From NCBI RefSeq assembly GCF_003173595.1, contig NZ_QGNZ01000001.1, positions 496,001-560,000 on the forward strand: a stretch of 64,000 nt of DNA, given 5' to 3'. Shown here one piece after another: positions 299 to 23,067 of this stretch. The notes below the pieces were generated by a model. The model was not told the DNA's origin and ran no database searches. It worked only from the letters and a program-made list of their open reading frames with translations. The translations under genes and the position numbers were made by a program. This stretch comes from Pedobacter yonginensis (GTDB lineage Bacteria > Bacteroidota > Bacteroidia > Sphingobacteriales > Sphingobacteriaceae). Each line of letters starts with the position of its first letter. Positions within the stretch are counted from its first letter, which is position 1.

Positions 299-919
299 GA
301 ATGACCAAAAGATTGATAAAGACCATGATTTAATTTTTACATTTGGAAAGGAACGGTATAAATTCTTGGCGGACTGTAGTCCGTCTTTCCGCTAAATCCC
401 CGATTGAAAAAATCGGGGGATACCGCTTCAATACGGTTTAGGAACATCGGATTGTGCAAATAAAGCAATTTTGATCAAATTTTGCGCTTATCCATAGGCT
501 TCAAACCTGGGTAAAATAGCCCCAGTGGTATTGAAGCCATTTTTCATGGCGAAGTTAAAGCGAAACTACCGAAACCGACTGGCACTGCAACTGCGCTCCA
601 ATTTTTTTTGAATGACCAAAAGATTGATAAAGACCATTATTTAATTTTAACATTTGGAAAGGAACGGACGGAATTCTTGGCGGACTGTAGTCCGTCTTTC
701 CGCTAAATCCCCGATTGAAAAAATCGGGGGATACCGCTTCAATACGGTTTAGGAACCGGGGTTTGTGCAATTACGGCAATTATTCAAGTTTTGTGTTTAC
801 CCATATGCTTCAAACCTGAGTAAAATAGCCCCGATTGTATTGAAGCCATTTTTCATGGCGAAAGTAAAGCGGGACTACCGAAACCGACTGGCACTGCAAT
901 TGCGCTCCAAATTTTTTTA
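299..919. repeat. Tandem duplication of a ~311 bp noncoding unit
   Basis: Unit 1 begins at 299 and unit 2 at 610 (both start GAATGACCAAAAGATTG); the second ends about 919. The copies are mostly identical with scattered substitutions. Each contains three nested inverted repeats: CGGACTGTAGTCCG, CCCCGATT...AATCGGGG (both in the 380-425 and 690-735 zones), and ACCG...CGGT around a CTTCAATA core. Neither copy has a convincing open reading frame; predicted short ORFs here differ between the copies and are interrupted. It looks like a structured intergenic repeat that has duplicated in place. 920-1078 holds no gene. Confidence 0.8.
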
Positions 920-13488: not shown

Positions 13489-13563
13489 GGTGGTTGTAGC
13501 TCAGTTGGTTAGAGTATTGGTTTGTGGTGCCGAGGGTCGTGGGTTCGAGCCCCATCAGCCACC
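13489..13563 (+). tRNA. tRNA-His (GTG anticodon)
   Basis: Folds as a full cloverleaf with the anticodon loop TTTGTGGT (anticodon GTG), a T-loop GGGTTCGAGCCCC and the extra 5' G at position -1 that marks tRNA-His, pairing with C73 at 13563. The acceptor stem has one G-U pair. The CCA end is not fully encoded (CCG follows C73). The 3' end forms the start of a 44 bp direct repeat, so this gene is the probable integration site of the island downstream. Confidence 0.93.
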
Positions 13564-13602
13564 CCGAAGTTTTAAAGCAGTTCTGAAAAGAGCTGCTTTT
13601 TT
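13559..13602. repeat. Left attachment-site repeat (tRNA-His 3' end plus terminator)
   Basis: 44 bp, identical to 21483-21526. It contains the last five bases of the tRNA (CCACC) and a 10 bp hairpin with a GAAA loop (AAGCAGTTCT...AGAGCTGCTT) followed by a T run, which serves as the tRNA's terminator. Duplication of a tRNA 3' end at both sides of a gene block is the classic mark of site-specific integration (attL/attR). Confidence 0.85.
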
Positions 13603-13678
13603 CGTTTTAAATGGTTTTTATTTACATTAACCTATTTAGCAATCAATATGCTAAGCCTGCCATTTGTAAATTCTTAAT

Positions 13679-13981
13679 TTGGATTTCTGTAACAAAGGTA
13701 ATGTCTTGAACATTTTGTGGTATAGAAGTTATTGGTCAATTTTACAAACGCGCACACGACACGCGTGCGCCAGCGAGGATTTGGACGGCTTCGAGGTAAA
13801 GCAATTGGACGATGCGGAGGAAACCAATCTGAACCATTTCCAGCGTTGCGAGTTGAAAATTACTGATGATAACGGTAATACGTTCAGCACTAAAAACCCT
13901 TTTATCATTAACGAGGTGGCAATGAGTATCAAGGCACTTTGTGGGGTAAACTGTCAGAGGTGGAAGCGCAAATTTCATTGA
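13679..13981 (+). pseudogene. Chimeric, frameshifted mobile-element gene fragment
   Basis: The ORF reads 100 aa, but its first ~25 residues come from AT-rich intergenic-like DNA. Coding character begins abruptly near 13750 together with a jump in GC content. Near the 3' end a different frame gives a better-looking continuation, EYQGTLWGKLSEVEAQIS, ending at a stop near 13989, so a frameshift around 13915-13935 is likely. No family was recognised. A terminator follows at 13998. It is probably a remnant of a conserved gene of a Bacteroidota plasmid or conjugative element, truncated at its 5' end by the integration or a deletion. Confidence 0.4.
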
Positions 13982-13997
13982 ACCTTTAAATTTTTAT

Positions 13998-14020
13998 GCC
14001 TCCCGAGGATTTCGGGAGGC
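13998..14020 (+). terminator. Terminator after the gene fragment
   Basis: A 9 bp perfect stem GCCTCCCGA (13998-14006) with TCGGGAGGC (14012-14020), loop of 5, followed by a short T/A-rich tail. Confidence 0.6.
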
Positions 14021-14045
14021 TATTTATTCACTAAAGTTTAAAGTA

Positions 14046-14276
14046 ATGGAAAGCGCATTTATAGATTTTTTAGACCAGCTGTACCAACGAGGATATGCGG
14101 AAGATTTCAAGGAAAACAACCCCGATGCCTATTATAGCCAATTAGCAGAATTTGAAAACCAGTATAGCGATAAACACAATGACACATCATATGTATCTAA
14201 CGGTTCGCGTAGAAGCCAAGACCGACCTGCCGCTAATCGAAGCCGTCAGGGAATTAGAAGACCAAACGCAAATTAG
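14046..14276 (+). CDS. Small mobile-element protein of unknown function
   Basis: A 76 aa protein starting at ATG 14046, with an acidic, helical N-terminal half (MESAFIDFLDQLYQRGYAEDF ... NPDAYYSQLAEFENQY). The last third is Arg/Asn/Ser-rich and overlaps the next gene in another frame, so the natural protein may originally have ended near residue 45 and been extended by a frameshift; this is inference. No domain recognised. Its position just ahead of the DUF932 gene suggests the two belong to the same mobile-element gene cluster. Confidence 0.5.
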   Translation: MESAFIDFLDQLYQRGYAEDFKENNPDAYYSQLAEFENQYSDKHNDTSYVSNGSRRSQDRPAANRSRQGIRRPNAN

Positions 14277-14373
14277 CGTCAGCAGTAGGCCAACTGTGGA
14301 AGTCCTGGAAACAGAGTTATTAAAATCCGAATTACCAACTTTAAAAACTAAAGACAATGGCACGCAATCTTAA
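14179..14373 (+). CDS. Small mobile-element protein of unknown function
   Basis: The preferred start is ATG 14179 (MTHHMYLTVRVEAKTDLPL), giving 64 aa; an upstream ATG at 14152 in the same frame is possible but less likely. A beta-strand then an amphipathic helix (LIEAVRELEDQTQISVSS) are visible. The gene overlaps the previous one by 98 bases and the DUF932 gene by 17 bases, an arrangement that suggests translational coupling. Family not recognised. Confidence 0.5.
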   Translation: MTHHMYLTVRVEAKTDLPLIEAVRELEDQTQISVSSRPTVEVLETELLKSELPTLKTKDNGTQS

Positions 14374-15387
14374 TTATAACGAGCAGACAGGCAAACACAG
14401 TTTTATGTCGGTCAAACACAAAGCGTGGCACGGCTTGGGTCAGATCATCACCGATTATCCGACCAGTAGCGAAGCCATCCAATATGCAGGACTAGATTTT
14501 GAAGTTGCCAAACGCTCGAACGTACACCAACTGTCCAGCGGTGTAAACATGATTTCAGAAAACAGCCTTTTTACCTTTCGCACCGACACCGAGCAGGTTT
14601 TGGGCGATAAGGTGGGGATTGATTACCAGGTGGTACAGAATACCGAGGTTTTCGGCTTTTTGACGACATTTTAGGAAATGCCACAGATATAAAGTATGAA
14701 ACAGCTGGCTGTTTGTATGATGGTCAAATCGTGTTTGTAACCGCCAAACTGCCCGAATATATCCGTGTGAGGCGTGATGATCTGATTGAACAGTATTTAA
14801 TGCTGACTTCTTCGCATGATGGTACGGGCAGCATTACCATTGCTTTTACGCCTGTGCGTGTGGTGTGCTGCAACACGCTAAATGCCGCTTTGAAAAATAA
14901 TACGAACTGTATTAAAATACGCCACACCGCCAGCGCATCAGACAAATTGAAACAGGCACACCAAATGCTGGGCATTTCCAGTCGTTTAGCCGAAGAAATG
15001 GAAATGATTTATAACCGCTGGTCTAGGGTGCGGATTTCCGACCCCGAACTAAAAAGACTGGTACAGATGGCAATGGTGCCAAACCGTGATGTACTGGAAA
15101 AATTACGCATGGGGCAGGATGAAAATTTATCCAGTCATTTCAGCAACATAATTGAAAACGTATTGGAATATGCGCATACCAGCCCAACGCAACAGGAAGC
15201 CACGACGAAGGGAACGGTTTTCGGTGCTTACAATGCTATTACTGGTTATTTTCAGAACGTGCGCAGTTACAGGGACGAGGAAAGCAAGTTCAAATCCATT
15301 TTGTCGGGTACAGGATTGGCAAGGACACAGACCGCATTCAATCTCTGTACGAATTTTGTGAAACTGGGCACAAGCGCTTTAAACTAA
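14357..15387 (+). pseudogene. DUF932 (phage/plasmid-like) gene, frameshifted
   Basis: Two consecutive ORFs, 14357-14674 and the frame ending at 15387, together make a ~340 aa DUF932 protein. The first part contains the typical opening (KHKAWHGLGQIITDYPTSSEA) and the second the conserved TPVRVVCCNTLNAAL segment. The frames meet at 14655-14665, where the T5 run in GGCTTTTTGAC would need one extra T to restore the expected FGFFDDILGN. DUF932 genes are found in phages, plasmids and conjugative elements of Bacteroidota; their function is unknown. The break may be real decay, a sequencing slip in the homopolymer, or less likely a programmed shift. Confidence 0.75.
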
Positions 15388-15545
15388 GCTTTCGGCAATT
15401 TTTTTACTCTGTGAGTGGTCACCGAAATCTCGGGCGGCCCCTTGCGGGGCACAAGTGTTTGTAAAGTGTCTGATTAGGTATTGGAATCACATTTTATTTT
15501 TAGTGGTTAACTTTTCATAACTTGCCTTATTGAATTATAAATTAA
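15388..15545. other. Intergenic region with a GC-rich hairpin
   Basis: Contains GGCCCCTTGCGGGGC near 15433, a short strong hairpin without a T run, at the boundary where the GC-richer mobile-element remnant gives way to the AT-rich cargo genes. No gene or clear promoter seen. Confidence 0.5.
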
Positions 15546-16265
15546 ATGATTAAGGCATCTTTTCTACAATACGCTTCTGATATTTTGGCTTCAACCAACT
15601 CCACGTTATCTTGGGGCAAATTAGTCAAATATTTTAATGCAAAAAGTGTTGACTATAATGTCGACATTCCTCATACAAGCTTGACTTTCCCTTCTACAGG
15701 CTTAGCAAACAAAAGAACTGGTTTTTATGAGAACTTGGTTCATTTTACTCCTGAACAGCAATTTGAAATATTGGAAGAGCTTTGTGATATTTATAATGAA
15801 GTTGCCGAGGTTACAGAGTTAAAAGGCAAGCTATATGCAATGTATGGGGGGGTTAAACAAAATACTGCAATAGCTGCTAGCGCCGAACTTGTAGCAGAAA
15901 CCCAAAGTTTATTGAAAGATTTCCCTGATGCTGATAAACAATATAATTCGGGACTGGATAAAATAACAAAGGGCATTTATGAGCGAAATGCATTGGATGA
16001 TCTCCGATTGAGCCTTGAATTGCTGTTAAAAGGTGTCTTGAACAATAGCAAATCGCTAGAAAATCAGAGAGCTTCAATTGGCGAATTTTTTAAGGTTAAA
16101 AATATCTCACCTCAAATTGCGAATATGCTTTGGACGTTGATTGACCAGTATTCTAAATATCAAAACGAGCATGTCAAACATAATGATAAAATTAATCCCA
16201 AAGAGATAAATGTTATTTTGGATCTCACTACGACATTCATGAAGCACCTTTTACAACATGTTTAG
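15546..16265 (+). CDS. Island protein of unknown function, possible abortive-infection type
   Basis: A soluble, mostly helical 239 aa protein with no signal peptide or membrane segment. The N-terminal ~75 residues look like a small folded domain (FLQYASDILASTNSTLSWGK). The C-terminal ~90 residues (RNALDDLRLSLELLLKGVL ... YQNEHVKHNDKINPKEINVILDLT) resemble the helical tail seen in abortive-infection and HEPN-like families, but the canonical R-x4-6-H motif is not present, so this is only a suggestion. It is convergent with the ABC-3C-like operon, 34 bases from the ATPase stop codon, and belongs to the island cargo. It could be an independent defence gene or a passenger. Confidence 0.6.
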   Translation: MIKASFLQYASDILASTNSTLSWGKLVKYFNAKSVDYNVDIPHTSLTFPSTGLANKRTGFYENLVHFTPEQQFEILEELCDIYNEVAEVTELKGKLYAMYGGVKQNTAIAASAELVAETQSLLKDFPDADKQYNSGLDKITKGIYERNALDDLRLSLELLLKGVLNNSKSLENQRASIGEFFKVKNISPQIANMLWTLIDQYSKYQNEHVKHNDKINPKEINVILDLTTTFMKHLLQHV

Positions 16266-16299
16266 TATAACCAAAATGGTGCTTACTGCCCGGTTGGAT

Positions 16300-18438
16300 T
16301 TAAGATAGTCTCACAATACTTTTACCATTATCTGGTAACCGAAATATATGATAATCTTCATTCACTTTTAATTTCGATAATAAAGCATCTAGGTCAAGTT
16401 TGTCTACAGGTTTGTCATTCTCAGTAATCAGTACTTTTTGCACAGATGTTAAAATGATAACCTGCCGATCCTTAATCGCCGCAGCTTTTTCAAATAAAGT
16501 CTGCAAATTTTGACTCCGTATCGAATGTTGTCCAGGTTCATCTAGCAACAATAAACCGGGATGGTTTTTGCCAGCTACAAGTAGGGTCAGCGAATACGCC
16601 CACATCGTCCGAACAAAATCAGAAGCTGAAGAATTTGTTTTTATCGATTGTGGTAAGTCACTTTCTGAATTAAATTTGAAAACTGGAAAGTACTTAAAAG
16701 GCTCATTCAGCTGAATGAAGATGTTGTAGGCTTGGTTGCTGTCATAACCCATGGGAAAAAGGTACTGGGTTTTAAAAATGCTTTCGAAATTAATTAGGAT
16801 TTTTCGATCTTCAGCTACGCTGTTTTCCAATTTACCTTTCTTGATCAGTAAAAGTTGATATTCAGCTGCTACCTCACCTAAATTTAATAAATAACGATTG
16901 AAACGCATCTCCGCATATCGCAAATCATTAACTTCCTTCTCTAGGCGGACACGGTTTAAGCTATCTAAATCTGAGTAATCTCGATCATCTTCAATAAGTT
17001 CACGCAAGATTACTTTTATTTCTTCTTCTAATTTGCGCTGTTTATTTAGATAGTATTTACGCATGAGCTCCTTTTCTTCGATAATGGTTCGTAAACTGCT
17101 TATTGAACTTTTCATCATCCCTTGCTGTCCGCTGAGGTAGGAAATGTTTTGATCCAAAGTATATTTTTCAATAGTTACGCCTTCTGCTTTCATCAGGTCG
17201 TCTGAAACGGTTTGATGGCACGTGGGGCATTGATCAAACACATCGGTTATTAACCTCGATTCTTCAATCACATTTTTAATGCCCTTTTGAGCAATCAGTT
17301 CTTTACTGACATTGCCTAGATGCTTAGATATATTCTCATACTGTGATTTCTGGAGGTTGAGATTCGTGTCAAATTCTTCATAATTCTTCATGAATTCGAT
17401 TTGCTGTCCGTATAACACTTCTAATCTTTCTCGGATGTGTTCCTTGTTTTCACCAACCTTCTTTACCGGTAATTGCATCAGTGCGTCCAACTTATTTTGT
17501 TGCTTTTCGCTGAGGGATTTGAGAGTTTTTTCCTGTTGATCTTCCTCATCTCTCACCATCAAGGCAACGATTTTCAGACTATCTTGATCAGGGGTTATGC
17601 TTTCCGGAAGTTCACGAATGTGTCCGTTCCACTCAGCTGCTAGGCCATCAAGATGTGTAACAGTGTGGTCCCACTTTTTTATCAATCGTGTTTCTTCCCG
17701 TTCAATGTCGTCTCTTTCGGTCGAGATGGCCAGTTCTTTTAGATTTAATAAAAACTCTACTACTTTTTCCTTTGCACGATTGATTCCGTAAAAAGGCATC
17801 GTAGCAAAAAATTCTGACCAACCTTTGGTTTGCTCGATAAATAATGCTGAAAATATAGATTGCAGGTAAAGAGGACTCCGCCCTTTACTGTTGATTACCT
17901 CTGGAAGATCGAGTCCGATGAATTCGGCCAACCAATGGTAAAAACCATATTCATCTGTATTATTATTATGGTTTCGGATAAAAAGCACCCGGACATTTGT
18001 TTCATTTGAAAGGTCTGCAATAGATGATTTGAAGACACTAGCTTTTTTGGTCCTTAAGTCTCCATGTTTATCAAACTCCCCTGAATTGATCATTCGAGCG
18101 ATTGTTGTTATCTCACCGCGATCGTTTTCGATTTCCAATAATATACGCGACCTCGATACTCGATGTGTAATAATATCACCCGTTTTGGGATCACTTGTCT
18201 CAAATTCTGTTTTCAGTGCCTTACCAAGTGCTTTTTCGTTCATAGCACCAAGTTCCAACAACTCTTCCATGCCCAGGGCGTAGTAAATGCTTGAGCCTAT
18301 AGTGGATTTTCCTCTTGAGTTTTGTCCGGCAATTATATTCAATCCTGAGTAAAAGGGTATGTCAAATCCGTACTTTTCCGTATTATCGGTTGAGCCTCCA
18401 GGCAGTATAACCAGTCGTAATCTTCTTAATTTGATCAT
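16300..18438 (-). CDS. SMC/Rad50-like ATPase, ABC component of an ABC-3C-like system
   Basis: A 712 aa protein with a split ABC ATPase head. Walker A is at 38-46 (GQNSRGKST); a coiled-coil insert of ~400 residues carries a zinc-hook-like CPTCHQTV near residue 405; Walker B LLLLDEP lies near 629. The signature motif is degenerate (SSASDF near 600) and the usual switch histidine is not evident (ILTSVQ). The C-terminal residues return to the head fold. In ABC-3C loci such an ATPase is thought to sense a nucleic-acid or invader cue and license the effector. It is the last gene of the operon, one base after the middle component. Confidence 0.8.
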   Translation of the reverse strand: MIKLRRLRLVILPGGSTDNTEKYGFDIPFYSGLNIIAGQNSRGKSTIGSSIYYALGMEELLELGAMNEKALGKALKTEFETSDPKTGDIITHRVSRSRILLEIENDRGEITTIARMINSGEFDKHGDLRTKKASVFKSSIADLSNETNVRVLFIRNHNNNTDEYGFYHWLAEFIGLDLPEVINSKGRSPLYLQSIFSALFIEQTKGWSEFFATMPFYGINRAKEKVVEFLLNLKELAISTERDDIEREETRLIKKWDHTVTHLDGLAAEWNGHIRELPESITPDQDSLKIVALMVRDEEDQQEKTLKSLSEKQQNKLDALMQLPVKKVGENKEHIRERLEVLYGQQIEFMKNYEEFDTNLNLQKSQYENISKHLGNVSKELIAQKGIKNVIEESRLITDVFDQCPTCHQTVSDDLMKAEGVTIEKYTLDQNISYLSGQQGMMKSSISSLRTIIEEKELMRKYYLNKQRKLEEEIKVILRELIEDDRDYSDLDSLNRVRLEKEVNDLRYAEMRFNRYLLNLGEVAAEYQLLLIKKGKLENSVAEDRKILINFESIFKTQYLFPMGYDSNQAYNIFIQLNEPFKYFPVFKFNSESDLPQSIKTNSSASDFVRTMWAYSLTLLVAGKNHPGLLLLDEPGQHSIRSQNLQTLFEKAAAIKDRQVIILTSVQKVLITENDKPVDKLDLDALLSKLKVNEDYHIFRLPDNGKSIVRLS

Positions 18439-18439
18439 C

Positions 18440-18898
18440 TCAATATAACTCCCATTTTTTATTTACCGCTGCTATCACGTTTTGCGGTACAATTCCGATT
18501 TCTTTAACCCTGCTAATATCATCGGCAAAGAGCCCTAATGCTTCGAGTTTAGTCAAAAAATCTTGCCCCTTTTCTTTTATTTCAATTTGTAGATCGGCGC
18601 CCCGAACTGTACGGCTACAAAAACCATTGATCACAGACAATGTGATTACTTGGTCTAAAGCAGGCTCAAATACCCAGGGCACAATAGAATGGCGCGTTTT
18701 GTTTTTGATATCAGTAAGAATTTTCTGATTCTCAATCGATCGTAATGCCCACATAAATAAGTGGAGCTTTAAGAAAGTAGCTGCGTAAGGCTTGGAACAT
18801 CCGAAACGCAACACGGCCAACAGCATTACGATCTTATAGATCGGCTGGTACCTGAGTGGAACAGGTATAGCTTTAATATCCAATTTAACGTCGATCAT
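18440..18898 (-). CDS. Small middle component (ABC-3C MC-like)
   Basis: A 152 aa soluble, predominantly helical protein with no signal peptide. It opens LDIKAIPVPLRYQPIYKIVMLLAVLRFGCSKPYAATFLKLHLFMWAL, resembling the helical core of the middle components of ABC-three-component systems, and closes with a wHTH-like stretch (LQIEIKEKGQDFLTKLEALG). It separates the protease from the ATPase with single-base spacers on each side, exactly the slot the MC occupies in known ABC-3C operons. The assignment rests on position, size and general character; a profile search is needed to place it in a specific MC family. Confidence 0.65.
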   Translation of the reverse strand: MIDVKLDIKAIPVPLRYQPIYKIVMLLAVLRFGCSKPYAATFLKLHLFMWALRSIENQKILTDIKNKTRHSIVPWVFEPALDQVITLSVINGFCSRTVRGADLQIEIKEKGQDFLTKLEALGLFADDISRVKEIGIVPQNVIAAVNKKWELY

Positions 18899-18899
18899 G

Positions 18900-20042
18900 T
18901 CATTCTGTAAAGTTAAATGAACAATTCATTAACCACCAAGTAACCTTATGACGCGCAAGTTCCAGCGTGATTTTGTTGCTTTTGTCGCCCACTAAATCCT
19001 TGATATGTGTTGCAAAGTCAGCCTCTAATTTGAGTAAAAGATCTTTTGCTGCACCAGAGTCGGCAACAGTTCTAGTATAAGCTTCTTTAACTGATTCTTC
19101 GAAAGTTTCTGCGGTCGCTTCGTAGTCTGTTATTAATGTGCTTCGGTCACTAATTTGTGTGTTTTTATAATCTTGATTTAGAAAATTTATAATCCGATTG
19201 TGTGCATTTGAGTCTGCTTTAGCTTCGTTCGAAGACAGTATTCTACTTTTTCTTATAAGATTGTTGAAGTGTTCATCGTGCTGGCTGATCCAAATTTGAA
19301 CATCTTCGTCTGTAATTTTTTTCTCGGATGCTTTTTCCCATAATGAGATTTGGCTTATATCACTTAAATCGACCAATTCTTTGGCTAAACAGGATTGGAG
19401 GTTTTTGAGCTTACAGCATTTAATATCATCATTAAGTGCAATTTCACCTATAACCTGCTTCAGATGGCCAAGTAGATAGACCTTGTCGGCACGGATAATA
19501 TAAACGCCGCTGCCCGATAAGCCTTTCGCCTTCTTTGCTCCAGCTTCGCCAAATTGCTCAAAACTTTTGCCTTTCAGCGAAATCTTAAACTCGTTGGGCG
19601 AAATATCAATGACCGTTGCTTCCCATGTACGTGGCTCATTACTGTTGACCCCTTGATAACCCCTGAAATGAACTGGTTCGTGTGATAAGAAGTCATCTCC
19701 GCAAAATATCGTCATATAATCGCAGTCGATATTGGGCTTTTCGATCTCTAGCAATGCCCAGTCACCACATTTATCATATTGAACTTTACTTAGTATTTTA
19801 ATGGGTAAAAATTCCGAAGTATAGTCATGTTGATATTCGGCGATGATTTGCTCACAGTCCAGGTCGGAATATTCGCCATTTTCTCCGTTGATACAATGCT
19901 CGGCAGTCAATAGAAAGTGTTTACCTTCGTGACAAACAATCACACCACTGCCCTGGTTTACCAGCTCACCGTCAAACAGGATTTTAGTCCTAACGCAGGA
20001 TTTATGTAGTAAATTGTGAGGCATCTTTAGGGTACTAAACAA
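18900..20042 (-). CDS. Trypsin-like serine protease with C-terminal effector tail (ABC-3C effector)
   Basis: A 380 aa protein without signal peptide, so cytoplasmic. The N-terminal ~210 residues form a chymotrypsin-fold protease with a full triad: H49 in LLTAEHC, D94 in KCGDWALLE and S176 in GLSGSG. A linker helix region (210-300) is followed by a C-terminal domain ending LELARHKVTWWLMNCSFNF, like the tails that couple ABC-3C effectors to their ATPase module. Inference: on activation it cleaves host or phage proteins. Its ATG at 20042 lies inside the MBL gene (16-base overlap), and the middle component starts one base after its stop. Presence of the intact triad argues that it is active. Confidence 0.8.
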   Translation of the reverse strand: MFSTLKMPHNLLHKSCVRTKILFDGELVNQGSGVIVCHEGKHFLLTAEHCINGENGEYSDLDCEQIIAEYQHDYTSEFLPIKILSKVQYDKCGDWALLEIEKPNIDCDYMTIFCGDDFLSHEPVHFRGYQGVNSNEPRTWEATVIDISPNEFKISLKGKSFEQFGEAGAKKAKGLSGSGVYIIRADKVYLLGHLKQVIGEIALNDDIKCCKLKNLQSCLAKELVDLSDISQISLWEKASEKKITDEDVQIWISQHDEHFNNLIRKSRILSSNEAKADSNAHNRIINFLNQDYKNTQISDRSTLITDYEATAETFEESVKEAYTRTVADSGAAKDLLLKLEADFATHIKDLVGDKSNKITLELARHKVTWWLMNCSFNFTE

Positions 20043-21091
20043 ATATCATCAAAATATTCGGCATTCGCCATTTTCAGTTCTTCGGCGGTAAATAATAAAC
20101 CGCTCGTCGCTGTGATTTCTGACAAAGGATAATTAAAATATAATTTAATTCGCTTGTTTAGGTCTCGCTTGGGATGATATAGTAATCGGGCAATAGTTTC
20201 CCTGTCTGGATGTTTTGATCGGCCACTGCCACCATTGGTTGAAAAAATAAAATTATAAGACTCTACCATATCTAATACTTCGATTGAAGTATTATTCTTG
20301 CTGCCATGATGTGATACCTTTACATAGTCAACTTTCAGGCGATTGTGGGTTTCATTATAGCCGAGTGCAACAAGGCTTTCTTTGATAACTTCTGGGCGAG
20401 AATCTGCGAGTAGTAATATGCTGAGATCAGGAGTACGGAGCACGAATGCGATAGACATTGCATTGAAAAGGTCGCTAGAAACTGAACTTGACGCTCGGAA
20501 CGCTATTTTCGCAAGGTCCGTCATCGTGCCTTTCTTTATTTGCGATGGAGCATCATTTGTAATGGGTAAAGCCGCCATTTTATCTTTGTATTCTTGAGAA
20601 AGCTCTGGCCAATTCTCCGTTACTGCATTTAAAATCGCAGGTGTTGGTGAAAGTATTTCAAAGCAAATGCCATTACTACATTCATTCCTCATATTTGTAG
20701 TCACCCGTTCACTAAATATATGCTTAGGTACATTACGATCAATCAGCCATTTTTCTAATACTACTCCTTGCCCATAGGTGATTAGTTCTCCATTAGGGCC
20801 TATGGGTACAAGATTGGCACAATTAACCCATATCTTTTTGATGTCCATCTCAGCGAAGCGGGAGTTTTCAGCAAAGCTAATTAACCCTCCAATATGATCA
20901 GAATCGATGTGCGTTAGTATCATTAGGTCGATTACACAATCATCTTTGAGTGCATTTCGAAGCGCAAAATTAAAGGTAGTACTAGGCCCACCATCAATGA
21001 GTATGGTAAAGGGCTGTTCGTCGAGGTTAAAAGTTCTGATTAAGAGACAATCGCCATGATAAGCCTTTAAGATGTGTAATTTGGTTTGCAA
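20027..21091 (-). CDS. ComEC-like MBL-fold metallo-hydrolase, first gene of the ABC-3C-like operon
   Basis: A 354 aa metallo-beta-lactamase-fold enzyme. Metal ligands are in THIDSDHIGG (H61, D63, D65, H66), LLLADS (D230) and VSHHGSKNN (H261/H262), with a further SKHPD at 292-296 typical of the ComEC/Rec2 soluble domain. No membrane segments. Such domains are nucleases or phosphodiesterases in characterised relatives; activity here is inferred. The only start in frame before the first motif is TTG at 21091, with an in-frame TAG 30 bases upstream, so a non-ATG start is likely. It overlaps the protease gene by 16 bases and is the operon's promoter-proximal gene. Confidence 0.8.
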   Translation of the reverse strand: MQTKLHILKAYHGDCLLIRTFNLDEQPFTILIDGGPSTTFNFALRNALKDDCVIDLMILTHIDSDHIGGLISFAENSRFAEMDIKKIWVNCANLVPIGPNGELITYGQGVVLEKWLIDRNVPKHIFSERVTTNMRNECSNGICFEILSPTPAILNAVTENWPELSQEYKDKMAALPITNDAPSQIKKGTMTDLAKIAFRASSSVSSDLFNAMSIAFVLRTPDLSILLLADSRPEVIKESLVALGYNETHNRLKVDYVKVSHHGSKNNTSIEVLDMVESYNFIFSTNGGSGRSKHPDRETIARLLYHPKRDLNKRIKLYFNYPLSEITATSGLLFTAEELKMANAEYFDDICLVP

Positions 21092-21290
21092 ATTTGAAAT
21101 AATATTAATAGTGTTCGACTAATCTATGAAAATATTGTTCGAATTAATAATATTTGAAATGCTTTGATAATATTTATAGAATAAATATTATTCACAATAA
21201 TTGATTAAGCACTTCAAAGTTTTATTGTTTTACCAAATATTGTTACGTGACACAATGCAATTGACTAGTAGAGTAAAATTTAATTAAAAG
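21092..21290. other. AT-rich upstream region of the island operon
   Basis: Very AT-rich with repeated TAATATT and TGTTCGA phrases (GTGTTCGACTAAT, TTGTTCGAATTAAT). It holds no open reading frame of note. It should contain the promoter of the four-gene operon, but no TAnnTTTG with a proper -33 box was seen on the minus strand. Confidence 0.45.
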
Positions 21291-21330
21291 ATACCTAGTA
21301 GAGAACTTTCAAAACTTCTCTACTAGGTAT
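21265..21330. promoter_or_regulatory. Perfect 15 bp palindrome plus an extra half-site
   Basis: ATACCTAGTAGAGAA (21291-21305) and its exact complement (21316-21330) are separated by 10 bases. The core CTAGTAGAG occurs a third time as a direct copy at 21265-21273. The site is about 200 bases upstream of the island operon. No T run follows on either side, so an operator is at least as likely as a terminator. Confidence 0.55.
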
Positions 21331-21368
21331 AAAATTGATTGGAAATATGCGCATGCGACTAAAATACG

Positions 21369-21482
21369 CTAACCGACTAATTTTTCATTGGTAAGTTGCG
21401 GATCGATCTCCATCATTTTCCCCTTTAGGTTTGCTAGACGAGCTAAATCGTACATAAAATCCGTCGACAGAAGCAAGGAGCT
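21369..21482 (-). pseudogene. Possible 3' gene fragment cut by the right repeat
   Basis: On the minus strand the segment encodes STDFMYDLARLANLKGK and onward to a TAG at 21369-21371. It is protein-like in composition, but its upstream end runs straight into the 44 bp repeat (21483) with no start codon inside the island. It may be the C-terminal scrap of a gene removed during integration or deletion. No family recognised. Confidence 0.25.
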
Positions 21483-21526
21483 CCACCCCGAAGTTTTAAA
21501 GCAGTTCTGAAAAGAGCTGCTTTTTT
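21483..21526. repeat. Right attachment-site repeat of the island
   Basis: Exact 44 bp copy of 13559-13602, including the CCACC of the tRNA 3' end and the terminator hairpin with its T run. Marks the right boundary of the island and the left boundary of the small second module. Confidence 0.85.
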
Positions 21527-21890
21527 TGTTGTTAACCAAACACGGATACAATTTTCATTTCATTGACCACCCTTACCTGTCTATCGGAATTTTTATAAGA
21601 ATTCTTTTTTGTTTTTTATTTTGTTGCTGACAGGCATTGCTATAGGTTTAACTATTTGATTGATTTATAAATATAAAGAACTCTAAGAAGGATTAGCAGA
21701 TGATAAAAAATGATTAGAATATTTTTGTTATGCCAGATAAGAGAAATAGTGGTAAATTAGTTACTAAAATCTAATGTCAATTTTTGGGAAGGGTATCCTA
21801 ATATCACCTTTAAATTTGTTGATGATGCCAGGATGGTACATAATAGGACCTAACTTGTAAGTGCTTATCATGCGAAAAAATTGGAAAGGT
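21527..21890. other. Intergenic region of the second module
   Basis: About 360 bases of AT-rich sequence between the right repeat and the promoter of the two-gene cassette. No open reading frame, repeat or RNA gene recognised. Confidence 0.4.
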
Positions 21891-21923
21891 TTTTGTGATG
21901 ATCGATAAATACATTTATATTTG
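21891..21923 (+). promoter_or_regulatory. Promoter of the two-gene cassette
   Basis: TTTTG at 21891-21895, a 20-base spacer, and a perfect TATATTTG at 21916-21923. The ATG at 21939 is 15 bases downstream, so the leader is very short. The upstream TTG at 21921 overlaps the -7 box and is unlikely to be a start. Confidence 0.7.
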
Positions 21924-21938
21924 TATGTTAACATTAAA

Positions 21939-22145
21939 ATGGCAGTAAATCACAAACAGACCCCAAAGGGTGTAAGGCTAAAATGGGCTCCGCTTAAAGA
22001 AGCGAGAAGTGTTAGCTTTTCTCGCGATTCTGTACAAGGAACTTGGGTCTTGAAGTTATCTGAGGGCAACTGTCCAGTAAAACCTTCCAGTGGTGTTAAA
22101 TATTCAGGAAAAGGTCAATCAGACAAAAAATACCTGATTCCTTGA
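21939..22145 (+). CDS. Small basic protein of unknown function (cassette gene 1)
   Basis: A 68 aa, Lys/Arg-rich protein (MAVNHKQTPKGVRLKWAPLKE ...) with no signal peptide, membrane segment or recognised domain. ATG 21939 is chosen over the TTG at 21921, which lies in the promoter's -7 box. Its TGA stop shares three bases with the TTG start of the next gene (TTGA), so the two are almost certainly co-translated. A short basic protein followed by a larger overlapping partner resembles the layout of toxin-antitoxin or regulator-effector pairs, but nothing in the sequence proves that. Confidence 0.6.
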   Translation: MAVNHKQTPKGVRLKWAPLKEARSVSFSRDSVQGTWVLKLSEGNCPVKPSSGVKYSGKGQSDKKYLIP

Positions 22146-22693
22146 GGTTCAATGTACCTGGGTATCCATTAAAATTCATTCAAAAAGAACCCAGTAGAGA
22201 TGCCTCGGCACATCAATTTACATATATCTATAAATTCTATTCACCATTAACCGGTTATAATTATATTCTTCGTGCAGATTATCATCAAGAAGATGTGTTT
22301 GCAATTAAATTCTATGCACAACCACATAAACACAGTGATCTAAAGTATTCTAACATTACTAATAGAGGTGATGTGCCGAATATCCTGGTTAGCTGTTTAA
22401 GTGTGGTCCCAATTCTATTGGCCAATCATCCCCAGGCATCTTTTGGATTTATTGGTTCCAGAACTGTGGACAAGGCTTCACAACGTGTCGAAGGTCATCA
22501 GAACACACAGCGTTATAGAATTTATAAAGAATTGGTCAAAGAGAAAATTGGCTCATTAACTTTTGAGCACGTAGACTATCAATCGCTTAGCGGTTATCTT
22601 CTCCTCAATAGAGCTGCAGTAAATCTAAAGGCTAAAGAAGCAGCGATCTTAACTATGTTTGCCGAAACCTACAATAACCTATTAGACGTTTGA
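22142..22693 (+). CDS. Protein of unknown function (cassette gene 2)
   Basis: A 183 aa protein starting at TTG 22142, which overlaps the previous stop codon; there is no usable ATG in the first 160 residues, so the non-ATG start is well supported. The sequence is mixed alpha/beta with many aromatic residues early (FTYIYKFYSPLTGYNYILRADYH) and a helical end. A middle segment (FGFIGSRTVDKASQRVEGHQNTQRYRIYKELV) is charged and could bind nucleic acid or nucleotide; this is speculation. No family recognised. Together with gene 1 it is the only cargo between the second and third copies of the attachment repeat. Confidence 0.6.
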   Translation: MRFNVPGYPLKFIQKEPSRDASAHQFTYIYKFYSPLTGYNYILRADYHQEDVFAIKFYAQPHKHSDLKYSNITNRGDVPNILVSCLSVVPILLANHPQASFGFIGSRTVDKASQRVEGHQNTQRYRIYKELVKEKIGSLTFEHVDYQSLSGYLLLNRAAVNLKAKEAAILTMFAETYNNLLDV

Positions 22694-23067
22694 TGAGAAA
22701 TGCCATTAATTCATGAGTAGCTTTTTATGATTTGGGGGGTGGAATAACAATGTGCATACGATGAGCGGTTGTTGTTATTCTAAAATTTTCGAAAAACCAT
22801 CTATTCCAATTCGTTCGCAAAATAATTCTAATTACGCATTAACACCGATCCCAAGTTTTGAAAGCAGTTCTGAAAAGAGCTGATTTTTTTGTTTTCTGTG
22901 CATTCAATATCTCCATCTCTGCGTTGAGAACTCCAATTTCATTTTGGTAATTCGCGATTTAAAATCAGAATCAATCCTAAAAAGATGAAAAAATCTATTT
23001 CGGCATGCAGCCATTTTTTTCCTGATTGCGTCTTTACTTAAAATTAAATTCATCAAACCTATTTACC
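22694..23067. other. Intergenic region at the end of the second module
   Basis: No gene. It contains the third, imperfect attachment repeat (22850-22893) and then AT-rich sequence up to the DUF4932 gene. An ATG at 22741-22760 starts nothing long. Confidence 0.5.
22850..22893. repeat. Third, degenerate copy of the attachment repeat
   Basis: Matches the 44 bp repeat over about 40 bases with three differences: one base missing before AAGTTTT, one inserted G after it, and C to A near the T run. It lacks the CCACC of the tRNA end. The stem of the hairpin is still partly formed and the T run is kept, so it may also act as a terminator for the cassette. Confidence 0.65.

What the first reader, a model, noticed from the sequence alone, without database searches (positions are those of the whole stretch)
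21939..22693. Unknown overlapping gene pair with its own strong promoter
A 68 aa basic protein and a 183 aa protein share a TTGA stop-start overlap, directly downstream of a near-perfect promoter and inside a repeat-bounded module. Neither resembles a known family to me. The size pattern (small basic partner first) suits a toxin-antitoxin, anti-phage or regulatory pair; this is inference.
Basis: partly seen in the sequence, partly recalled or inferred. Interest (0 to 1): 0.6.

Follow-up and report, generated by a model that had tools for sequence, protein, structure and literature searches.

The report
Conserved overlapping toxin-antitoxin-like gene pair
Two small overlapping genes in a Pedobacter-like bacterium turn out to be a conserved, patchily distributed two-gene unit found in several families of Bacteroidota and some of their phages, most likely an undescribed toxin-antitoxin pair whose effect has not yet been tested.

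Summary
Gene 1 (21939-22145, 68 aa, net charge +9) and gene 2 (22142-22693, 183 aa, TTG start) share a TTGA overlap. All 50 intact close homologues of gene 2 that I examined have an adjacent upstream partner: 49 small (52-85 aa), one 218 aa. Of 354 other ORFs, 5 have such a neighbour. Both genes show purifying selection. Three distant relatives carry the small frame downstream instead.

In four genomes gene 1 survives with gene 2 lost or truncated; no intact close homologue of gene 2 lacked gene 1. That fits antitoxin (gene 1) and toxin (gene 2). Gene 2 is a sub-threshold DUF6934 relative. Models of it and of a homologue resemble GNAT-like acetyltransferase folds, weakly (Z under 8), without sequence support. 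Gene 1 matches no family.

The pair lies alone between two copies of a tRNA-His 3'-end/terminator repeat, beyond a Lamassu island bounded by the same repeat.

Verdict: conserved TA-like module, new variant of a known kind. Toxicity, chemistry and any phage-defence role are untested.

The parts
21939..22145 (+). gene 1: 68-aa basic partner, proposed antitoxin; core KGVRLKW, C-terminal YLIP
   Evidence: conserved partner; purifying selection; no family match
22142..22693 (+). gene 2: 183-aa protein with TTG start, proposed toxin; sub-threshold DUF6934 relative, GNAT-like fold predicted
   Evidence: homologue model
22142..22145 (+). TTGA stop-start overlap (gene 1 stop TGA, gene 2 start TTG)
   Evidence: stop-start overlap in homologues
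21892..21923 (+). Bacteroidota-type promoter TTTG-N20-TATATTTG, ending 15 nt before gene 1
   Evidence: similar sequence upstream of gene 1 in L003 and in the orphan of G048
13490..13565 (+). tRNA-His gene, anchor of the island array
13559..13608 (+). repeat copy 1: last bases of tRNA-His plus terminator (attL-like)
21483..21532 (+). repeat copy 2 (48 of 50 identical to copy 1): far end of the Lamassu island, near end of the pair's segment
22846..22895 (+). repeat copy 3 (42 of 50): far end of the pair's segment; terminator-like stem at 22865-22882
20027..21091 (-). context, not part of the pair: LmuA-like MBL-fold protein of a Lamassu system
18900..20042 (-). context: LmuA-like trypsin-like protein
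18440..18898 (-). context: LmuC-like
16300..18438 (-). context: LmuB-like ATPase

Best explanation
The two genes form a translationally coupled toxin-antitoxin-type module. Gene 1 is the antitoxin: a short, basic, largely disordered protein with a conserved C-terminal tail (YLIP here) and, in this subfamily, a KGxRLxW core. Gene 2 is the toxin, a single-domain, probably GNAT-like protein. One promoter drives both. Ribosomes that finish gene 1 re-initiate on the weak TTG start of gene 2 inside the overlap, so toxin is made only in proportion to antitoxin. The tail of gene 1 probably binds and masks the conserved face of gene 2 (E117, R124, Y128, H143, S150, Y152). When gene 1 is lost or not renewed (element loss, translation shut-off, phage infection), free gene 2 would arrest the cell, possibly by modifying a translation component. 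The pair travels as small cargo, here in a tRNA-His repeat-bounded segment beside a Lamassu island, elsewhere at other chromosomal sites or in phage genomes. Shown here: both genes and the overlap, their conservation and selection, the asymmetry of loss, the repeat-bounded setting. Inferred: direction (which is the toxin), coupling, tail binding, GNAT-like chemistry, target, trigger, mobility.
For: Partner present in 39 of 39 unique intact loci, overlap 0-4 nt in 33 of 39, and in 11 of 11 further loci; control 5 of 354. Purifying selection on both genes. Asymmetry: in 399 family genomes, 18 have a subfamily-A gene 1. In 11 gene 2 is intact, in 4 gene 1 is intact but gene 2 is lost or cut short (G048, G611, G715, G797), and in 3 both are decayed. 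In 3 more loci gene 2 is broken with gene 1 intact: L007, L089 (possibly a sequencing error), L178. Intact close homologue of gene 2 without gene 1: 0 of 50. Orphan antitoxins are common among known TA systems (PMC7192599, passages). Patchy distribution: 12 of 148 relatives, own genome included, 41 of 399 family genomes, 10 of 395 genomes across the phylum, and phage contigs. Structure: in the homologue model 14 of the 18 ten-residue blocks of gene 2 have mean pLDDT of 88 or more; 39 of 50 and 43 of 50 top VIA rows are acetyltransferases by my reading of the titles.
Against: No toxicity or neutralisation data. Gene 1 has no recognisable DNA-binding domain, unlike most type II antitoxins (recalled). 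The fold match is weak (Z under 8, within the tool's stated background); Foldseek on the second model put CK2 kinases first at probability below 0.1; profile comparison with 20 GNAT proteins of the same genome gave under 1% probability. No classical acetyl-CoA loop motif stands out in the alignment (by eye). The absence of gene 2 without gene 1 could reflect only the need for translational coupling. The gene-1-first order is not universal in the wider superfamily: 3 of 3 distant loci examined have no upstream partner and a small downstream frame instead; five more distant hits (G711, G796, G771, G763, G556) and several weak fragments were not examined.
Confidence: 0.6

Rival explanations
1. 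Anti-phage or superinfection-exclusion pair: gene 2 is an effector and gene 1 its inhibitor or sensor, released by phage infection. This is a TA-like defence module rather than an addiction or stress module.
For: Sits in a tRNA-His array beside Lamassu, a PDC-S32 candidate and DUF932. Of 10 picked neighbours of homologues, 4 match PADLOC models at E 1e-5 or better: PD-Lambda-1 (L067), an HNH restriction-like protein (L053), a phospholipase-like 'Effector' (L083) and a BrxL/DolB/IetA-like protein (L073). In L085 the pair lies between a tail-spike-like and an endolysin gene.
Against: 6 of the same 10 neighbours had no PADLOC match. No enrichment statistic against a matched control was made; many homologues stand among ordinary genes; the PADLOC survey was cut at 25 of 108 families.
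Confidence: 0.2
2. Non-toxic enzyme plus small cofactor or regulator: gene 2 is a GNAT-like modifying enzyme and gene 1 a substrate adaptor or chaperone needed for its stability.
For: Strict co-occurrence, strong conservation of polar residues in gene 2, GNAT-like models. Dependence on gene 1 would equally explain why gene 2 was not found alone.
Against: Gene 1 retained intact without gene 2 in 4 genomes is less expected of an adaptor. Patchy distribution; no Pfam family is shared by more than 4 of 148 scanned neighbours.
Confidence: 0.15
3. Gene 1 acts mainly as a coupling leader: its translation, and slow termination at an Ile/Val/Leu-Pro-stop, sets the expression of gene 2.
For: 29 of 39 partners end in [LIV]-Pro. 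C-terminal proline can stall termination and induce SsrA tagging in E. coli (Hayes et al. 2002, seen only as cited in passages of PMC7246954).
Against: 10 of 39 partners lack the terminal Pro, several keeping a Y-x-Y-[LI]-type tail; gene 1 has invariant internal residues K, G, R, W, G and survives without gene 2. The same paper saw no significant expression change with C-terminal Pro in its Mycoplasma pneumoniae library.
Confidence: 0.04
4. Chance ORFs in an intergenic stretch.
For: None beyond small size.
Against: Conservation in several families of Bacteroidota, pN well below pS, conserved overlap.
Confidence: 0.01

Closest known systems
DUF6934 (Pfam PF22028)
   Same: Gene 2 matches 63 residues of the profile (E 0.023); profile-profile comparison with 8 DUF6934 members gives 75% probability; shared TN.G(D) and R..(I/L)Y-like signatures; DUF6934 genes also have a small neighbour.
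   Different: Below the curated cut-off (15.2 against 27 bits). Here the partner is upstream and overlapping, while in DUF6934 loci a 51-72 aa ORF lies downstream in 10 of 11 looked at (L016-L026).
GNAT type II TA systems (TacAT, AtaRT, KacAT)
   Same: Antitoxin-first two-gene arrangement with overlap (that of the known systems recalled); predicted GNAT-like fold; invariant Tyr128 on a helix where GNAT toxins carry their catalytic Tyr (position in those toxins recalled, no superposition made).
   Different: No GNAT Pfam or profile match, and gene 1 is not a DUF1778 ribbon-helix-helix or DUF4065 antitoxin (families as described in PMC9177977, passages).
Lamassu defence system
   Same: Neighbour in the same tRNA-His array.
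   Different: Opposite strand, separate repeat-bounded segment, no sequence relation.
Antizyme and isocitrate lyase 2 C-terminal domain (GNAT-like folds without acetyl transfer; property recalled)
   Same: Among the top fold matches.
   Different: Matches are weak; no sequence relation shown.

Membership tests
Type II toxin-antitoxin system (general) | Two adjacent co-directional genes conserved as a pair | tested here: met
   39 of 39 and 11 of 11 intact close homologues
Type II toxin-antitoxin system (general) | Toxin gene inhibits growth when expressed alone | not testable with these tools
   no experiment available
Type II toxin-antitoxin system (general) | Antitoxin is a protein that binds and neutralises the toxin | not testable with these tools
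   gene 1 is under protein-level selection; binding not shown; a read-through monomer model left gene 1 disordered
Type II toxin-antitoxin system (general) | Antitoxin can persist without toxin, toxin does not persist without antitoxin | tested here: met
   4 intact orphan gene 1; 0 of 50 orphan gene 2; small numbers, and coupling is an alternative cause
GNAT-DUF1778 TA family | Ribbon-helix-helix DUF1778 antitoxin | tested here: not met
   gene 1: no Pfam, NCBIfam, PADLOC or PHROG match
GNAT-DUF1778 TA family | Toxin recognisable as GNAT by sequence | tested here: not met
   no GNAT Pfam match; hhalign with two own-genome GNAT sets under 1%
GNAT fold | GNAT topology | tested here: inconclusive
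   39 of 50 and 43 of 50 top VIA rows are acetyltransferases but Z is at most 7.9 (rmsd 3.5, 111 aligned) and 7.4 (rmsd 3.5, 114 aligned for RimL); Foldseek E at best 0.025
DUF6934 (PF22028) | Score above the curated cut-off of 27 bits | tested here: not met
   15.2 bits; homologues L069 17.8, L071 17.3, and no DUF6934 match for L010, L011, L084, L087
Lamassu | LmuA/LmuB/LmuC homology | tested here: not met
   neither gene matches a PADLOC model

The most novel reading that the evidence does not exclude
A new, Bacteroidota-centred superfamily of toxin-antitoxin modules. A GNAT-like domain without the classical acetyl-CoA loop, related to DUF6934, has been rebuilt into a toxin with a new active site (conserved C85, E117, R124, Y128, H143, S150, Y152, N156). 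It is held by a tiny disordered antitoxin that has no DNA-binding domain and acts through a conserved C-terminal tail. The small partner sits upstream, overlapping the toxin start, in some branches and downstream in others.
Probability: 0.35. Interest if true: 0.65.

Novelty: new variant of a known kind. Interest (0 to 1): 0.5.

Why it matters
Toxin-antitoxin systems of the Bacteroidota are less explored than those of the Proteobacteria (general knowledge, not tested here). This would add an uncharacterised family present in about a tenth of the genomes of its bacterial family (41 of 399), a clue to the function of DUF6934 (no paper in the searched library mentions that name), and an example of a small TA-like cargo accreting beside a Lamassu island at a tRNA-His hotspot. 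The prediction is easy to test in laboratory strains.

Tried and rejected
PUR-alpha-like nucleic-acid-binding fold: suspected early from the weak hits L013, L036, L038-L041 and L043-L045. I recalled the name DUF3276 for them, but the two I scanned (L013, L045) are themselves only weak DUF6934 matches in Pfam. No PUR fold appears in the 50 rows shown by each PDB fold search, which does not exclude it. Dropped.

Programmed frameshift at the junction: the gene 2 frame is open only 15-63 nt upstream in six subfamily-A loci (L002-L007) and by eye I saw no shared slippery heptamer; re-initiation preferred.

Slow termination at Pro-stop as the main function: kept only as a low rival because 10 of 39 tails lack Pro.

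Plasmid carriage: no match in 72,556 plasmid records. PDB by sequence: nothing for gene 1; for gene 2 only matches at E 0.055 or worse. PHROGs: no match for either gene. Single-sequence viral scan: no hit; the alignment scan found 6 loci.

Read-through fold: gene 1 came out disordered; with a one-residue link and three paired rows this says little about binding. A first alignment that mixed in gene 1 rows misaligned them and was not used.

Defence-neighbour survey: 156 neighbour ORFs of 34 loci were listed and the first 150 printed. I aligned 148 of them, leaving out by hand an ORF containing gene 1 of L067 and one overlapping gene 2 of L072; L089 was not reached. They were scanned against PADLOC and Pfam. 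One of the 148 is the upstream partner of L072 itself. Only the top 25 families of each scan are shown and no control set was run, so no enrichment is claimed.

Rows dropped before the 39-locus count: broken or degenerate gene 2 (L007, L008, L089, L108, L109; L008 and L108 also lack a recognisable gene 1), L013 as a member of the other family, and duplicates of the same locus (including L086, same partner sequence as L078). In one search: duplicates L159, L165, L168; broken L178; ambiguous L179 (gene 2 frame of 138 aa, partner 12 nt away); distant L180-L182, reported apart. Kept there although imperfect: L172 (stop one codon before the end of the match) and L169 (start codon unclear). Not examined: G711, G796, G771, G763, G556, G636, G671, G618.

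The tRNA-His repeat as merely a common terminator: not fully excluded. One search also lists terminator-part matches far from tRNA-His in other genomes (for example G048 about 135 kb, G009 about 60 kb away), and only 7-8 bases of the tRNA itself are shared in the window.

Full report
WHAT IS THERE. Gene 1 (21939-22145, 68 aa; 13 K/R and 4 D/E) and gene 2 (22142-22693, 183 aa) are present as described, with a TTGA overlap in which the TGA stop of gene 1 and the TTG start of gene 2 share bases. A Bacteroidota-type promoter pattern (pattern recalled), TTTG-N20-TATATTTG, precedes gene 1. It occurs 5 times in the window against 4.5 expected, so it is weak on its own. But a TAnnTTTG box lies within 60 nt of gene 1 in 22 of 39 homologues against a mean of 2.1 in simple shuffles (maximum 7), and L003 and G048 show similar sequence at the same place.

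THE PAIR IS CONSERVED AS A PAIR. Gene 2 homologues were found in 12 of 148 related genomes, own genome included; in 24 loci of the named genome collection (Pedobacter, Mucilaginibacter, Chitinophaga, Arenibacter, Galbibacter, Sinomicrobium, Psychroserpens, a Saprospiraceae MAG and others); in 6 viral contigs; in 2 of 50,697 phage records, both from human faeces; in none of 72,556 plasmid records; in 10 of 395 genomes spread over the phylum, all of the same class as the window; and in 41 of 399 genomes of the family, some of them weak fragments. After removing duplicates and broken copies, 39 of 39 loci have an upstream partner. Of these, 38 are 52-85 aa and net basic; the 39th (L072) is a 218-aa protein with the same kind of tail. 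The overlap is 0-4 nt in 33 of 39 and between -3 and +23 nt in 38 of 39; L106 has an 18-nt gap. Eleven further intact loci all have a partner of 53-66 aa, 6 with a 0-4 nt overlap and 5 with a gap of 2-14 nt. Among other ORFs of at least 150 aa in the same DNA, 5 of 354 have such an upstream ORF at their first start codon (printed as 6 of 355, one being gene 2 of L059; an earlier version, included gene 2 copies: 66 of 451 at the first start, 69 at any of the first 30 codons). Both genes evolve under purifying selection; besides window-L003, four other locus pairs gave pN below pS for both genes.

ANATOMY OF GENE 1. Twenty subfamily-A partners share invariant K10, G11, R13, W16 and G34 (window numbering), and 19 of 20 end in Pro. 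Subfamily-B partners differ in their front part but mostly end in Y-[KR]-[YH]-L-[LIV]-(P) or close variants. 29 of 39 partners end in [LIV]P. The tail is therefore the most widely shared element of an otherwise variable, basic protein. No Pfam, NCBIfam, PADLOC, PHROG or PDB match was found. That such a tail binds gene 2, as antitoxin tails do in other systems, is inference.

ANATOMY OF GENE 2. It is a sub-threshold DUF6934 relative (profile comparison 75% probability). Across 33 homologues the invariant residues are M1, F32, C85, F101, G105, E117, R124, Y128, H143, S150 and Y152. Model 1 (window protein, 11 sequences) has mean pLDDT 81.8. Model 2 is the L068 homologue (51% identical) with its partner read through: 14 of the 18 ten-residue blocks of gene 2 average 88 or more (range 76-98, the last residue 38), while residues 11-50 of the gene 1 part are under 50. 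Topology: four strands, a helical stretch, a strand, a short hairpin, a helix, two strands and a final helix. VIA-align 2 lists mostly acetyltransferases among its top 50 for both models (39 and 43 of 50 by my reading of the titles, Elp3 not counted). Best Z is 7.9 for antizyme (rmsd 3.5 over 111 residues) and 7.4 for antizyme and RimL. RNase E takes 6 rows in the first list. All are below Z 8, inside the tool's stated background. Foldseek against PDB is weak (best E 0.025, isocitrate lyase 2) and for model 2 puts CK2 kinases first at probability below 0.1. Against viral models 12 matches have E of at most 0.001, mostly uncharacterised or unnamed proteins. Profile comparison with 20 GNAT proteins of the same genome, in two sets, found nothing. 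A GNAT-like fold is therefore probable but unproven, and acetyl transfer is a guess.

WHO IS TOXIN, WHO IS ANTITOXIN. In 399 family genomes a subfamily-A gene 1 was found in 18. Eleven have an intact gene 2 beside it. Four keep an intact gene 1 with gene 2 gone or cut short within about 20 codons of the junction: G048, G715, G797 and G611. Three are decayed in both (G583, G550, G600). In three more loci gene 2 is broken but gene 1 intact: L007, L089 and L178 (L089 is an unverified phage contig and may hold a sequencing error). No intact close homologue of gene 2 lacks its partner (0 of 50); where gene 1 is missing (L008, L108) gene 2 is broken too. The orphan of G048 shows pS 0.44 against pN 0.17 relative to the window. 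This is the pattern expected if gene 2 is harmful alone and gene 1 is harmless. The numbers are small. Orphan antitoxins are frequent in Klebsiella (PMC7192599, passages). The alternative is that gene 2 simply cannot be translated without gene 1.

SETTING. A tRNA-His gene at 13490-13565 is followed by its terminator. The block made of the last 7-8 bases of the tRNA and the terminator recurs at 21483-21532 (48 of 50 identical) and 22846-22895 (42 of 50). Between copies 1 and 2 lies a Lamassu system with PDC-S32 and DUF932 genes. Between copies 2 and 3 the only ORFs of note are the gene pair, in 1.36 kb. I fetched ten relatives picked. The same kind of terminator directly follows tRNA-His in six (L090-L094, L098). 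In three (L095, L096, L099) another sequence follows the tRNA; in L096 a terminator copy lies about 12.5 kb further on, and for the genomes of L095 and L099 one search lists copies about 27 and 34 kb away. In L097 the tRNA was not detected. This fits serial integration at tRNA-His, with the pair's segment as the older, outer insertion. Against it: terminator-part matches also occur far from tRNA-His in some genomes, and no integrase was recognised among the ORFs scanned here, so mobility is inference. In G048 the orphan gene 1 lies about 1 kb from a copy of the repeat, with a PIN-domain (VapC-like) protein and a 98-aa neighbour between them. Homologues also lie next to endolysin genes (L078, a MAG, and L085, a viral contig) and on a contig with a helicase/primase-like gene (L084).

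WIDER SUPERFAMILY. DUF6934 loci over the cut-off carry a small ORF (51-72 aa) downstream instead in 10 of the 11 loci L016-L026; the eleventh, L022, has a 124-aa frame there. Three of three distant gene 2 relatives examined (L180-L182) lack an upstream partner but have a short downstream open frame ending IPGYKxRG or similar. So 'toxin-like domain plus small neighbour' may be the common theme, with the order switching between branches.

JUDGEMENT. Best explanation: a translationally coupled TA-type module (0.6; a further 0.2 for a mainly anti-phage variant). It is not a member of the GNAT-DUF1778 family by tested features, and not a DUF6934 member by cut-off, though it may work like the former. 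No paper in the searched library mentions DUF6934. Searches on GNAT toxins, disordered antitoxins, coupling and orphan antitoxins were seen as listings, with passages read from PMC9177977, PMC5535158, PMC7246954 and PMC7192599; nothing I saw there described this pair. That is not proof of novelty.

Noticed in passing
window 13490-21532: tRNA-His-anchored island with a Lamassu system carrying two LmuA-like genes (an MBL-fold and a trypsin-like protein) plus LmuC and LmuB, a PDC-S32 candidate and DUF932; the far repeat is 48 of 50 identical to the tRNA 3' end/terminator block.
   Followed up: partly
L095, L096, L099 (G037, G030, G004): tRNA-His looks like a recurrent integration hotspot in this genus: in some relatives another sequence follows the tRNA and copies of the usual terminator are listed about 12-34 kb away.
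   Followed up: partly
L016-L026 (DUF6934 loci): DUF6934 genes over the Pfam cut-off are followed by a small ORF (51-72 aa in 10 of 11; LEKANEMLRTVGLP-like in several); possibly a second branch of the same TA-like theme.
   Followed up: partly
L180, L181, L182: Distant gene 2 relatives with no upstream partner but a short downstream open frame ending IPGYKxRG or similar, overlapping the gene end; its start codon is unclear.
   Followed up: partly
L137 (G048:C1), reverse strand; L153 (G550): A PIN-domain protein with a 98-aa neighbour next to an orphan gene 1 and a tRNA-His-like repeat; a similar-looking pair follows decayed remnants of the gene pair in G550.
   Followed up: partly
L072:4773-5426: A 218-aa protein takes the place of gene 1 and ends in the same AYSYLV-type tail, suggesting the tail can be attached to other proteins.
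   Followed up: no
rows 4, 9, 10: Agrobacterium phage Atu_ph07 has three proteins, one titled Zeta toxin domain-containing, with a part predicted to resemble gene 2 (Foldseek E 3e-5 to 3e-4).
   Followed up: no
window 374-443 and 685-754, - strand: Two Flavo-1 RNA matches about 310 bases apart with identical scores.
   Followed up: no
L013, L036, L038-L041, L043-L045; alignment A4: A further Bacteroidota family (EYEVRFGRKQDN...TNKGE) weakly matches DUF6934 and, in L013, gene 2; function unknown.
   Followed up: partly
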